Part shown: positions 40,241 through 60,068 of the stretch, piece after piece
Position numbering within the stretch: position 1 is the first letter of the stretch
How the letters are laid out: each line of letters begins with the position of its first letter
NCBI GenBank assembly: GCA_019637555.1
Contig: JAHBVK010000006.1
Span: 62,001 to 126,000, forward strand
Origin: Anaerolineae bacterium
GTDB lineage: Bacteria > Chloroflexota > Anaerolineae > Aggregatilineales > UBA2796
DNA: 64,000 nucleotides
Direction of reading: 5' to 3'
Notes under the pieces: generated by a model
The model's input: only the letters and a program-made list of their open reading frames with translations
Told to the model about the DNA's origin: nothing
The model's database searches: none
Made by a program: the position numbers and the translations under genes

Positions 40241-40295
40241 GACCGGAGGTTTAAACCTCCGGCTACAAACCCTTTGAAACCCACTGAAGTGGGTT
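40241..40295. repeat. Modular palindromic repeat, locus 2a
   Basis: The palindrome ccggaggtttaaacctccgg is followed by ctacaaac and the palindrome aacccactgaagtgggtt. It starts 14 bp after the stop of the 1827-residue gene and could serve as its terminator or mRNA end. Confidence 0.85.
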
Positions 40296-40430: not shown

Positions 40431-40492
40431 AACCCACTGAAGTGGGTTTCCAGAGTGTTGTAGCCGGAGGTTTCAACCTCCGGTCTGCTCAC
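40431..40492. repeat. Modular palindromic repeat, locus 2b
   Basis: The modules appear in the opposite order and orientation to locus 2a: aacccactgaagtgggtt, ccagagtgttgtagc, then ccggaggtttcaacctccgg. With 2a and the element between them it fills most of the 360-bp gap between the two DUF2298 genes. Confidence 0.85.
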
Positions 40493-43189: not shown

Positions 43190-43343
43190 AAGTGCTGGGT
43201 GCTGAGTGCTGAGAAAAGAGTGCCGTAGTGCCAAGCGTATCACAAGTAGACCGAAGGTTGAAAGCTCCGGTTACAACACTAGGTAAACCCACTGAAGTGG
43301 GTTTTGAGAGATTGGGCTTTGTAGCGGAGGGGTGACCCCGCCA
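43190..43343. repeat. GTGCTGAGT repeat and modular palindromic repeat, locus 3
   Basis: First comes a short gtgctgggtgctgagtgctg string (43192 onward), like the one at 951. Then a degenerate copy of the modular repeat: gtagaccgaaggttgaaagc, aacccactgaagtgggtt (43286-43303 area) and gtagcggaggggtgacccc. Confidence 0.75.
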
Positions 43344-55361: not shown

Positions 55362-57242
55362 ATGGGAATGCGTGGGGGTAGATCGCGCGGGCGTCGCGGT
55401 GGTCGGGATAAGGCAGAGGAGCTAGATCCGCTGCCGGGGACGCCGGTGCAGTGGGGACGATTGTTCGGCTATCTGCGCCCCTATACCGGACGCATGATCA
55501 TCGCGGTGATCGCGCTGGCGATTTACACGGGCGTCAATTTGCTGTTCCCGTTGTTAATCAGCGACATCATCGGCATCGTGATCCAGCAGCAGGATTATGA
55601 TCGGCTGAACACACTGACGCTGCAACTGGCGCTGTTGTTCCTTGTGCAGGCGGGCTTCTCTTTCGTCCAGAACTTTCAACTCACCTATGTGGGCGAGAAA
55701 GTCGTGTTCGATCTGCGGACGCGGCTGTTCAATCACCTGCAAACTTTGTCTTTTGATTTCTTCGCCGCACGTCCGGTGGGTGAACTGCTGTCGCGCATTT
55801 CCAACGATGTGAACAGTGTGCGGACGCTGCTGACCAACAGCATCGTGGATGCACTCTCACAGGTGGTCACGCTGGTCGGCGCGTTGATCCTGATGTTCGT
55901 GTTCAACCCCTCGCTGATGGTCTTCATCCTGATCTTGATCCCGCTGCTGTTCGGCGCGGCGTTCCTGTTCAGCCGTCCGCTGTCATCGTTGAGCACCAAA
56001 GTGCAGGACGATCTGGCGGAGGCGACCAACATCGCTACGGAATCGCTCGGCGGTATCCGCATCGTCAAGAGCTTCACCCGCGAACCGTATGAGATTTCGC
56101 GCTATTTCGGCAAGATGACGCAGATGTTCGGCAGCACAATCCGCTTGTCGCTGTGGCGCGCTGGTTTCGGATCGCTGATGTCGTTCCTCGGCTTCGGCAC
56201 CATCGCGGCGATCCTGTGGTTCAGCGGGCGCGAGGTGATCGCGGGGCGGCTGACCTTCAACTCGGTGATCCTGATCCTGATCTACGGCATCAACGTGGCA
56301 GGATCGCTCGGCGGGCTGGCGAATCTGTACCGCAATTACCGCGAAACCGTCGGCGCGACCAAGCGCGTGTTCCAGATTCTGGACAGCGAACCCACGATCA
56401 AGGATGCGCCTGATGCCAAGGCATTGGGCACGGTGGAGGGTCGGATCGCGTTCGAGGATGTGTCATTTAGCTACGACGGGCGGATGACGGTGCTGGAAGA
56501 TGTCAGCCTGGAGATCGAGGCGGGCGAGATTGTGGCGCTGGTGGGACCGAGCGGCGCGGGCAAGAGCACCATGTTCAATCTGATCCCGCGATTCTACGAC
56601 CCGACGAAGGGCGCGATGAAGATCGACGGGCAGGATTTACGCTCGGTGACGCAGCAGAGTTTGCGTTCGCAGATCGGCATCGTGCCGCAGGAGACGGCGC
56701 TGTTCAGCGGCAGCATCCGCGAGAACATCATGTATGGACGCCTTGACGCCAGTGAGAGCGATCTGATCGCGGCGGCGACGGCAGCGAACGCGCACGAGTT
56801 CATCATGGAACTGCCCGAAAAGTACGAGACACTGGTCGGTGAGCGTGGGATCAAACTCAGCGGCGGTCAGCGGCAGCGCGTCGCCATCGCACGGGCGATC
56901 CTGAAGAATCCGCGCGTGCTGCTGTTGGATGAGGCGACCAGTTCGCTGGATAATGAGAGCGAAGAACTGGTGCAGGACGCGCTCAACAATCTGATGCAGA
57001 ACCGCACCACCGTGATCATCGCGCACCGCCTGAGCACGATCAAGATCGCGCATCGGATCTGCGTGCTGGAACACGGCAAGATCACCGAGCTAGGCACGCA
57101 CGCGGAGTTGATGGCGCTGAATGGCTTGTACGCCAAGCTGTACAACATGCAGTTCAGGGAAGATGAGGAAGCGCAGTTGTTGGCGGGCAATGGCAACGGT
57201 GTAGGTATAAGTGGTGGTATCGGCGTTGGTGCGGGGAAGTAG
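55362..57242 (+). CDS. ABCB-type ABC exporter (fused permease and ATPase)
   Basis: A 626-residue half-transporter. Six membrane segments cover residues 30-320, including NDVNSVRTLLTNSIVDALSQ and the long cytoplasmic helix of the coupling region. The nucleotide-binding domain follows with VEGRIAFEDVSFSYDG, Walker A GPSGAGKST (about 394-402), Q-loop GIVPQETALFSGSIRENI, signature LSGGQRQRVAIARAIL, Walker B VLLLDEATSSLDNESE and the H-loop TTVIIAHRLSTI. It would work as a homodimer exporting lipids, drugs or peptides (MsbA/BmrA-like). The N-terminal 25 residues are Arg/Gly-rich; the last 20 are Gly-rich and low complexity. It ends 17 bp before a palindromic repeat. Confidence 0.93.
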   Translation: MGMRGGRSRGRRGGRDKAEELDPLPGTPVQWGRLFGYLRPYTGRMIIAVIALAIYTGVNLLFPLLISDIIGIVIQQQDYDRLNTLTLQLALLFLVQAGFSFVQNFQLTYVGEKVVFDLRTRLFNHLQTLSFDFFAARPVGELLSRISNDVNSVRTLLTNSIVDALSQVVTLVGALILMFVFNPSLMVFILILIPLLFGAAFLFSRPLSSLSTKVQDDLAEATNIATESLGGIRIVKSFTREPYEISRYFGKMTQMFGSTIRLSLWRAGFGSLMSFLGFGTIAAILWFSGREVIAGRLTFNSVILILIYGINVAGSLGGLANLYRNYRETVGATKRVFQILDSEPTIKDAPDAKALGTVEGRIAFEDVSFSYDGRMTVLEDVSLEIEAGEIVALVGPSGAGKSTMFNLIPRFYDPTKGAMKIDGQDLRSVTQQSLRSQIGIVPQETALFSGSIRENIMYGRLDASESDLIAAATAANAHEFIMELPEKYETLVGERGIKLSGGQRQRVAIARAILKNPRVLLLDEATSSLDNESEELVQDALNNLMQNRTTVIIAHRLSTIKIAHRICVLEHGKITELGTHAELMALNGLYAKLYNMQFREDEEAQLLAGNGNGVGISGGIGVGAGK

Positions 57243-57258
57243 CATTGCGTAGAGCGAA

Positions 57259-57316
57259 GTAGACCGGAGGTTGAAACCTCCGGCTACAACACTTGGTAAA
57301 CCCACTGAAGTGGGTT
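57259..57316. repeat. Modular palindromic repeat, locus 4
   Basis: gtagaccggaggttgaaacc, then tccggctacaacacttgg and the palindrome aacccactgaagtgggtt. The best preserved single copy in the window. It starts 17 bp after the exporter stop codon. Confidence 0.85.
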
Positions 57317-57345
57317 AGGCACAGAAAGAACTCGTGTGAACGCTC

Positions 57346-57429
57346 ATGTCTCAACAAATGATTGTGCGTGAACTGACGGGTCTAGATGCGGCGGCGTATC
57401 ATGCGATCCGGCTTTGTTTCGATCCATAA
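57346..57429 (+). pseudogene. 5' fragment of a GNAT acetyltransferase gene
   Basis: 27 codons (MSQQMIVRELTGLDAAAYHA, then IRLCFDP and stop) match the first 23 residues of the intact GNAT protein at 59547 (MSQQLIVRDLSGADAAAYQA, IRL). After IRL the sequence departs into the AT-rich island. The rest of this copy is missing. The two copies differ at several silent sites, so they are old paralogues rather than a fresh duplication. Confidence 0.75.
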
Positions 57430-57440
57430 TAGCAACAACT

Positions 57441-58880
57441 AGATATGTCTTTTCTCCTCATCTAAGTCATCAATAATCTGTTGTAAATCATCAGTCATTT
57501 TACCTTGTCGTAATGCATATTCAAATTGCGCTAAACGAAGCTATTGAATAATTTTGATTTATCAACATCCTCCGTTGCGATCGCATCGATAATTCACGAT
57601 GTTTAGCTACTAGGATCTTTGTCGGGAAATTTTAGTAGAAGCTCGAACATCATCATTTGAGTCTTCAAGAGCGATTTTCAGCGCTCGAACGATCTCATCA
57701 GACACTCTATGCTACATGCAGAACCGATCATTCCCTAAAAGCCAGACAGCGATGGGCGCAAGAGTCATCTTTATCTTTAAGTGCAATCGCAAAAATCGGA
57801 CTTAGCGTACAGCGTACGACCAACAGGACCCTGGCCAAAGGCAGCGTCAAGACGCAAATCTTCTTCATCTAGGAGACTAATAAGTGTGGGCACAGCAGGT
57901 GCACCGATATCAGCAAGTGCGCATAATACAACTGCCTGCTATTGTTTCAGATCGTCGGCTTTGCTGCGGCTATAACGAGGGTATTGCTGGCGCACCTTCT
58001 CCCTGCATCGCGGATGGCATCAATTATTTGATACTGACGTCTGGGATTATTCCGCTTTACTTTAGAGCTTTTAGTAATACAGAGATGAAAAAGATAATAT
58101 GTAGAGTTTGATGAGTAGACCGAATAATTCGTGTACCCGCCTGTGAATCCTCTTGCAGCAAGTTAAGATTAATCCCATCATTAACGGACACTCTACCAAC
58201 TTTCCGCGTTGCCCATCTTCGTTCTGCAACCGTACCCTTTCTCACCTCGCACCCGATCATTTCATAAGCTGGGGTTCGCATTTTGACGCAATTGTTCTGC
58301 TGGTAGCCGAATAACCCGCTTGCCAAAATAATCCTTGTATGTGACATCAAAGAAACGGTCGTAAAGTATGTTCAGCCGGTCGGTATCTTTGGCAATTATC
58401 AGTTCTGTAAGAAAGTTCGAAGTTCTTGATAGGTTGTGACAAGCAACATAAGCATATAGGGATTAGTAGCAAGATCGCGTAGTGTAGAAAATCTCTCTAA
58501 TACATAGAAAATCATACGACTTGCTGTGAAGGCAGAATTCAACAAAAGCTTTTGATTCGTGCGGTATCTAATGGTGTAACTCGAAGTACGGTAAATCACC
58601 AAGTAAAAACTTACTGTCAAGCGAGAATTTCCATCTATGTTTTGTCGTTGTATTCGGTTTTCGGAAGGTTTTTGGTAATCAGCCTCACGACAAGTTACCG
58701 TCACTGATACATTGGGGTACTTTGCCAACAACACCCGAATTGACTCAACGTCGTTGAGGTGCGGTGACTTTCTGCTCTGGCAATTCGTTTAATCCATCAA
58801 GGAACAACCGCACCTGTTATCTCTCAAAGCTTGCTCGGCATTTCCGGGCAAATTCTGTAAGCGCCAATGCTGTTCCAACA
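57441..58880 (-). pseudogene. Decayed NACHT-HEAT NTPase gene
   Basis: Read across frames on the minus strand, this is one degraded gene. The NACHT part shows VRLFLDGLNELPEQKV (Walker B), LLAKYPNVSVTVTCREADY (58680-58734) and LERFSTLRDLATNPYMLMLL (the sensor/winged-helix lead-in); Walker A was not found. HEAT repeats follow toward 57441: VLCALADIGAPAVPTLISLL, ALKDKDDS, KIALEDSNDDVRAS, and a tail ending LQQIIDDLDEEKRHI. NACHT proteins of this layout are STAND NTPases, many of them linked to antiphage defence. Multiple stops and indels make it non-functional as given. Edges are approximate. Confidence 0.6.
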
Positions 58881-59055
58881 GCATAAGAGCACATCGAGCT
58901 CATTCTCGCTGTATCCAAGATCCGGTCTCCACAGCGGATAGTAAGAAATTCATCGCCACAATACACTTCAAGTGTATTTATTGCCTTAGCGCCTCTGACA
59001 TATTTGTGGATCGCTTCAATTCCATAGGTTCGGAAACAGGTACTCAGTGCTGCGG
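58840..59055 (-). other. Open fragment upstream of the NACHT remnant
   Basis: A minus-strand frame without a clear start reads CSAALSTCFRTYGIEAIHKY, then VRGAKAINTLEVYCGDEFLT, and ends in a stop near 58835. It may be the N-terminal part of the NACHT protein in another frame or a separate small gene. No family recognised. Confidence 0.3.
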
Positions 59056-59059
59056 AACA

Positions 59060-59395
59060 CTAGACTGGTCGCAACCATATCTCACTGCCGTTGTAGATTT
59101 GAGTGACATATATCTCGCCAGACCATTCATTACCGAATGGGACTAGCCGCAAGTTCAGACTTTCGATATTTTCTTCATAGAAGTCAGCAGGTTCGGTACC
59201 AATTTGCTCGTTACTTGGCTCGTTGACTAATTTAGCGTAAGCATCAAATATGTGACGATAGGTTTCGTATTGGGAAGTTGGCTCGAAGTCGCAGATATAC
59301 CAAGGCTGATCTTGGCTACGAAAATACGCCGTTCCAATCAAAACATCACCAGCGTATAGAAGCCAACCATCTTTACGGTTATCAACCATATACAT
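59060..59395 (-). CDS. Hypothetical 111-residue protein in the AT-rich island
   Basis: An intact acidic, aromatic-rich soluble protein: VDNRKDGWLLYAGDVLIGTA, DQPWYICDFEPTSQYETYRH, a Glu-rich middle, and a C-terminus with beta-type strands (SGEIYVTQIYNGSEIWLRPV). No family recognised. The start at 59395 has AAGAG a few bases upstream; in-frame starts up to 59464 are possible. It lies just upstream of the decayed NACHT gene on the same strand, so it could be a former partner of that gene; this is only inference. Confidence 0.6.
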   Translation of the reverse strand: MYMVDNRKDGWLLYAGDVLIGTAYFRSQDQPWYICDFEPTSQYETYRHIFDAYAKLVNEPSNEQIGTEPADFYEENIESLNLRLVPFGNEWSGEIYVTQIYNGSEIWLRPV

Positions 59396-59546
59396 TATGC
59401 TCTTGCACATTAATTTAGCAGCATTATAGCATAAACAATAAACCGTTATGTGACGCATCACCATTCATCGCTGGAGATTGCGTCATGTGGTCTTTGTCCA
59501 TATTATGAAGTGCTACTTTGACTAAGCAAGCGATATGATGGAAATC

Positions 59547-60068
59547 ATGTCTCAACAACTGATTGTGCGCGACCTTAGCGGAGCGGATGCGGCAGCGTAC
59601 CAAGCGATCCGGTTGCGGGCGCTGAAAGATCATCCAGAGGCGTTCGCGTCGGCGTATGAGGATGAGAAAGAGAAACCGCTAGCGCAGATCGTCGAGTCGC
59701 TCGATCAGCCGACGACAGAACGGTTCATGCTCGGTGCGTTCGATGGCGAGGTGCTGGTGGGCATCGTCGGCGGTTATCGGGATGGGCATCGTAAATCCAA
59801 GCATCGGGCACATATCGTTGCTATGTATGTAGCGGAGGAAGCACGCGGACGAGGTATCGGGCGATCTTTGCTGGTCGAAGCGATCAAGCGGCTGCGGGCG
59901 ATGGATGGTGTCGAGGAGATCGTGCTGGCGGTGACGGTGGGCAACGATACAGCGCGATCACTGTATGCCAGCTTGGGATTTGAGGCGGCGTACATCGAGC
60001 CGAGATTCTTCAAGATTGAGGGCAGCTACTACGATCTGGAGTGGATGATCCTGCGGTTTGTAGATTAG
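59547..60068 (+). CDS. GNAT family N-acetyltransferase
   Basis: A 173-residue acetyltransferase. Standard GNAT fold: IVRDLSGADAAAYQAIRLRA at the start, LGAFDGEVLVGIVGGYRD (beta 2-3), then HIVAMYVAEEARGRGIGRSL with the acetyl-CoA pyrophosphate loop RGRGIG, and VTVGNDTARSLYASLGFEAA at the end. Acceptor substrate unknown. ATG 59547 was chosen because the truncated copy at 57346 starts at the equivalent ATG; in-frame ATG codons at 59535 and 59538 are alternatives. Confidence 0.9.
   Translation: MSQQLIVRDLSGADAAAYQAIRLRALKDHPEAFASAYEDEKEKPLAQIVESLDQPTTERFMLGAFDGEVLVGIVGGYRDGHRKSKHRAHIVAMYVAEEARGRGIGRSLLVEAIKRLRAMDGVEEIVLAVTVGNDTARSLYASLGFEAAYIEPRFFKIEGSYYDLEWMILRFVD

What the first reader, a model, noticed from the sequence alone, without database searches (positions are those of the whole stretch)
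57346..59547. AT-rich island with a decayed NACHT-HEAT NTPase between a truncated and an intact GNAT gene
A 5' fragment of a GNAT gene ends after 23 matching codons and gives way to sequence that looks AT-richer, with a NACHT Walker B, RDLATNPYMLMLL-type block and several HEAT repeats in one direction. The intact GNAT gene follows the island. NACHT proteins of this kind are found in bacterial immunity loci, so this may be the scar of a defence gene that inserted into, or replaced part of, a GNAT paralogue.
Basis: partly seen in the sequence, partly recalled or inferred. Interest (0 to 1): 0.62.

Follow-up and report, generated by a model that had tools for sequence, protein, structure and literature searches.

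The report
Decayed NACHT defence gene in island
A short AT-rich stretch in a Chloroflexota-related metagenome genome holds the broken remains of a common kind of bacterial immune-like gene (NACHT ATPase plus HEAT repeats) lying behind the stump of an acetyltransferase gene; this is an ordinary genomic scar, not a new system.

Summary
Window 57412-59544 has 42.8% GC against about 57-58% in the flanks. It starts after 22-23 codons of a GNAT gene (57346-57411), 81% identical at DNA level to the start of the intact GNAT gene at 59547. On the minus strand, 59059 to about 57440 reads as one colinear NACHT-HEAT ATPase broken by many lesions. A frameshift-aware alignment to an intact 727-aa NACHT-HEAT protein (Anaerolineaceae MAG RI_313) scores 210; 25 shuffles reach at most 46. 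It needs 15 frameshifts and 5 stops at the setting used, and 3-4 frame changes at the strictest. The gene has lost its N-terminal ~150 residues, and the Walker A lysine is not preserved. The interpretation, a decayed acquired bNACHT-like gene that landed in or replaced part of a GNAT paralogue, is plausible but only partly supported: no empty site could be compared, because the sister species lacks this gene order and this GNAT gene, and no mobile-element ends were found. The flanking genes are housekeeping or transport genes, not a defence island. Ordinary, low interest.

The parts
57258..57320 (+). intergenic palindromic repeat (GGAGGTTGAAACCTCC ... CCCACTGAAGTGGG); one of a dispersed family, not specific to this island
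   Evidence: 60 copies of the core genome-wide with up to 2 mismatches, 0 for the reversed control pattern; 4 in the window with up to 3 mismatches, none expected
57346..57411 (+). 5' stump of a GNAT acetyltransferase paralogue (22-23 codons)
   Evidence: 81% identical over 68 nt to the start of the intact GNAT gene; differences 2/2/9 by codon position
57440..59059 (-). NACHT-HEAT ATPase pseudogene (from about the Walker A position to a plausible C-terminus), with many frameshifts and stops
   Evidence: frameshift-aware alignment to L086 aa 154-590 over 59044-57643, score 210 vs shuffle maximum 46; colinear tblastn pieces; the last stretch to 57440 is read by eye
58778..58807 (-). Walker B, LFLDGLNELP
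   Evidence: 90% identical over 10 aa to L086; same block in most relatives
58672..58740 (-). VTCREADY block of NACHT, in a different frame from Walker B
   Evidence: tblastn with the relatives
58399..58506 (-). LRDLATNPYMLMLL block
   Evidence: tblastn with the relatives; read in ORF 58399-58734
58051..58239 (-). region after the NACHT core, with the THQTLHIIF motif
   Evidence: 35% identical to L086 aa 392-455
57643..57917 (-). degenerate HEAT-repeat region
   Evidence: aligns with the L086 HEAT array; HEAT_PBS E=0.078, sub-threshold
59060..59464 (-). intact small ORF (134 aa, or about 111 aa from a later ATG), uncharacterised family, lying directly 5' of the truncated NACHT gene
   Evidence: no Pfam, NCBIfam or PADLOC match; scattered distant homologues in Chloroflexota
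59547..60068 (+). intact GNAT acetyltransferase gene
   Evidence: Acetyltransf_1 E=9.9e-20

Best explanation
A foreign, AT-rich segment carrying a NACHT-HEAT STAND ATPase gene (with a small gene upstream of it) came to lie next to two tandem GNAT paralogues. In the process, or later, it replaced all but the first 22-23 codons of the first one. The NACHT gene then lost its N-terminus with the effector region, kept no recognisable Walker A, and collected frameshifts and stops, so it no longer makes the protein. The ancestral protein would have worked like other NACHT STAND ATPases: C-terminal repeats sense a trigger, the NACHT module oligomerises on ATP, and the N-terminal part (with a hydrophobic, transmembrane-like stretch in the closest intact relative) acts. 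Shown: the decayed gene, the GNAT stump, the composition break. Inferred: the insertion, the order of events, any defence role.
For: NACHT-HEAT identity; architecture of the intact relative L086, NACHT E=7.6e-9 plus HEAT_2 E=5.1e-58; GC break over the island; GNAT stump whose codon-position pattern marks a former working paralogue; other NACHT-profile matches are common in this genome, 20 at E<=0.001, so loss of one is tolerable. The tripartite sensing / NACHT / effector model is from PMC12169576.
Against: No empty site, target duplication, inverted ends or integrase/transposase gene was found at the edges. The GNAT stump could have come from a plain deletion next to a resident gene. The closest relatives are only about 34% identical, so the donor is unknown. 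The number of lesions depends on the frameshift penalty.
Confidence: 0.72

Rival explanations
1. The NACHT gene was an old resident between or beside the GNAT genes; a deletion, not an insertion, joined its 3' end to the GNAT stump.
For: The NACHT reading seems to end about 28 nt from the stump, as a deletion join could leave; no mobile ends found. An intact relative's NACHT gene is equally AT-rich without decay.
Against: GC differs sharply from the flanks over the whole island including the small ORF; the gene order is not conserved in any relative looked at, so residence cannot be traced.
Confidence: 0.2
2. The frameshifts are sequencing or assembly errors in a MAG, and the gene is intact in the organism.
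For: The genome is a draft with 5.33% contamination.
Against: Flanking ORFs over some 10 kb are open. The lesions include stop codons and are not confined to homopolymers. The N-terminus with Walker A is missing altogether.
Confidence: 0.05
3. The NACHT/HEAT resemblance is chance in AT-rich non-coding DNA.
For: Pfam finds nothing in the pieces above its cut-offs.
Against: Score 210 against a shuffle maximum of 46; colinear order of blocks in tens of relatives.
Confidence: 0.01

Closest known systems
NACHT-HEAT STAND ATPase of Anaerolineaceae MAG RI_313 (L086, WGMX01000020.1)
   Same: Colinear from just after Walker A through the NACHT core and HQ-motif region into HEAT repeats, 139/406 identical; similarly low GC gene (43.6%)
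   Different: L086 is intact (727 aa) with Walker A, an N-terminal hydrophobic part and a longer HEAT array
EruA, NACHT antiphage protein (NCBIfam NF058535)
   Same: NACHT core region, E=3.2e-5
   Different: Partial match only, 22 bits against a full-length cut-off of 1000; EruA is a far longer protein (profile of 1318 positions)
bNACHT proteins (bNACHT25 and others; PMC12169576)
   Same: Central NACHT with a C-terminal putative sensing part
   Different: No effector part or Walker A left; clade not assigned; no test of phage defence
cyanobacterial plasmid NACHT proteins (Nostoc, Acaryochloris, Tolypothrix)
   Same: About 26-28% identical to the L086 NACHT core
   Different: Found with L086, not with the island itself, which had no plasmid match at 1e-5

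Membership tests
NACHT STAND ATPases | Walker B and following NACHT blocks in order | tested here: met
   LFLDGLNELP, VTCREADY, LRDLATNPYML colinear with the relatives
NACHT STAND ATPases | Walker A (GxxGxGKS/T) | tested here: not met
   Alignment begins at the S/T after the lysine; the position reads CSAALST, with the small ORF's stop codon directly upstream; so it is a pseudogene of the family, not a working member
NACHT STAND ATPases | open reading frame | tested here: not met
   3-4 frame changes at the strictest penalties, 15 frameshifts and 5 stops at penalty 12
NACHT-HEAT architecture | HEAT repeats C-terminal to NACHT | tested here: inconclusive
   colinear with L086's HEAT array, but single repeats are below Pfam cut-offs
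bNACHT antiphage systems | phage protection | not testable with these tools
   needs experiment; the gene is broken
bNACHT antiphage systems | N-terminal effector domain | tested here: not met
   absent; the DNA upstream is taken by a small ORF without similarity to known effectors
mobile genetic element | integrase/transposase, target duplication, terminal repeats or tRNA site | tested here: not met
   none found in or next to the island

The most novel reading that the evidence does not exclude
The small ORF at 59060-59464, intact beside a heavily decayed neighbour and headed by a TATAAT-like box, is a retained gene of an undescribed family with a function of its own (for instance once a partner or regulator of the NACHT gene).
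Probability: 0.12. Interest if true: 0.35.

Novelty: new member of a known kind. Interest (0 to 1): 0.2.

Why it matters
It documents turnover of an immune-type NACHT gene in a genome rich in such genes, and shows that strict profile searches miss decayed copies which a frameshift-aware alignment finds easily. Beyond that it is ordinary.

Tried and rejected
Pfam, PADLOC and PDB searches of the joined NACHT piece: no match. Plasmid DNA and protein searches with the island, the NACHT piece and the small ORF: none at 1e-5; loose search with the small ORF gave only weak Streptomyces matches. Viral contigs for the small ORF: none; phage records: none. Copy of the island elsewhere in the own genome: none. 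Empty-site comparison: the ABC transporter upstream has a 74% identical orthologue in the only same-genus genome and about 60% in the family, but none shares the downstream genes, and the best GNAT hit in the sister is only 30% identical. NACHT genes next to homologues of the small ORF: none in the loci looked at. Selection on the small ORF from its openness alone: the probability of no lesion ranges from 0.003 to 0.26 with the frameshift penalty, so not conclusive. At the loosest penalty the L086 alignment runs on across the small ORF; judged spurious. One alignment was too loose for a genome scan and was narrowed.

Full report
The window lies in a 6.5-Mb draft genome of 116 contigs (contig C73; completeness 94.4%, contamination 5.33%). 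Genomes that carry similar NACHT genes are mostly Anaerolineae and other Chloroflexota MAGs, with some Acidobacteria and Proteobacteria. The organism itself is unnamed; a place in Chloroflexota is inferred, not shown.

Composition and GNAT genes. GC falls from about 58% to 42.8% between 57412 and 59544 and recovers at the intact GNAT gene. The ORF of an ABC transporter (55362-57242; ABC_membrane and ABC_tran) is followed by a palindromic repeat that occurs about 60 times in the genome, and then by the first 22-23 codons of a GNAT gene. These match the start of the intact GNAT gene (59547-60068) at 81% DNA identity over 68 nt. The differences sit 2/2/9 on codon positions 1/2/3, the mark of two copies that diverged while both were working. 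So the stump is the remnant of a paralogue, not a target duplication made by the island. The rest of that paralogue is not in the island.

NACHT pseudogene. The minus strand carries NACHT blocks in changing frames. A hand-joined piece gave a partial match to the NACHT antiphage protein EruA (NF058535, E=3.2e-5) and none in Pfam, PADLOC or the PDB. Since the joining was done by eye, that is weak evidence alone. A scan of 84,980 species genomes with an alignment of relatives gave 40 loci. tblastn of their NACHT proteins against the island shows the same order of blocks in most of them. The best, L086 of Anaerolineaceae RI_313, is a 727-aa protein with NACHT and a long HEAT array. A frameshift-aware alignment of L086 covers aa 154-590 over 59044-57643 with 139 of 406 positions identical and a score of 210; 25 dinucleotide shuffles reach at most 46 and the plus strand 36. 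The count of lesions depends on the penalty: 15 frameshifts and 5 stops at 12, 7 and 4 at 16, and 4 or 3 frameshifts at 20 or 25 over a shorter stretch. Some of the 15 may be alignment artefacts; about three to four frame changes are unavoidable.

5' end of the pseudogene. The alignment begins exactly behind the Walker A lysine. The codons in the place of GSGK read SAAL, and a few codons further upstream is the stop codon of an intact small ORF (59060-59464, minus strand). The N-terminal ~150 residues, which in L086 hold a hydrophobic stretch and Walker A, are gone. The small ORF has distant homologues scattered in Chloroflexota (E about 1e-5 to 2e-3) whose neighbourhoods, so far as read, hold no NACHT gene. 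Its C-terminus aligns with the ends of two of them, so it is probably a whole gene next to a truncated one. Whether it is under selection cannot be told.

Origin. The island has no close copy elsewhere in the genome, and no plasmid DNA match. Its edges show no terminal repeats, and no transposase, integrase or tRNA was found. The surroundings are PEP-utilising enzyme, kinase/pyrophosphorylase, cyclase-like, ABC transporter and solute-binding protein genes, so this is not a defence island. The only same-genus genome searched has a 74% identical orthologue of the ABC transporter but different genes beyond it and no close GNAT gene. Low GC alone does not prove recent transfer or decay: the intact L086 gene has 43.6% GC in a 49.1% locus.

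Function. Bacterial NACHT proteins have a C-terminal sensing part, a central NACHT module for oligomerisation and an N-terminal effector, and some defend against phages (PMC12169576). The ancestor of this gene presumably worked so; the present copy, without N-terminus, Walker A lysine or open frame, almost certainly does not. The genome has 20 matches to the NACHT profile at E <= 0.001, about half of them over the family's cut-off, so the loss is unremarkable.

Verdict. Observation confirmed, interpretation partly supported, an ordinary decayed member of a known kind.

Noticed in passing
window 59060-59464 (-): Intact 134-aa ORF in the island, family without a profile in Pfam, NCBIfam or PADLOC; distant homologues in a few Chloroflexota genomes (L024, L126, L127, L128). 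A TATAAT-like box lies just upstream of its later start codons.
   Followed up: partly
window 57258-57320; also 40245-40268, 40458-40481, 43253-43276: Dispersed REP-like palindrome GGAGGTTGAAACCTCCGGCTACAA, 60 copies in the genome with up to 2 mismatches and none for the reversed control; paired opposite copies about 200 nt apart at 40245/40458.
   Followed up: partly
G000 and G001 (whole genomes): 20 and 21 matches to the NACHT profile in the own and the sister genome, against 4-14 in the other relatives searched; the two genomes are also the larger ones.
   Followed up: no
G000:C73:145214-145627: Another weak NACHT-profile match (E=7.3e-4) in a 1627-aa open frame on the same contig, about 19 kb beyond the window's right end.
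   Followed up: no
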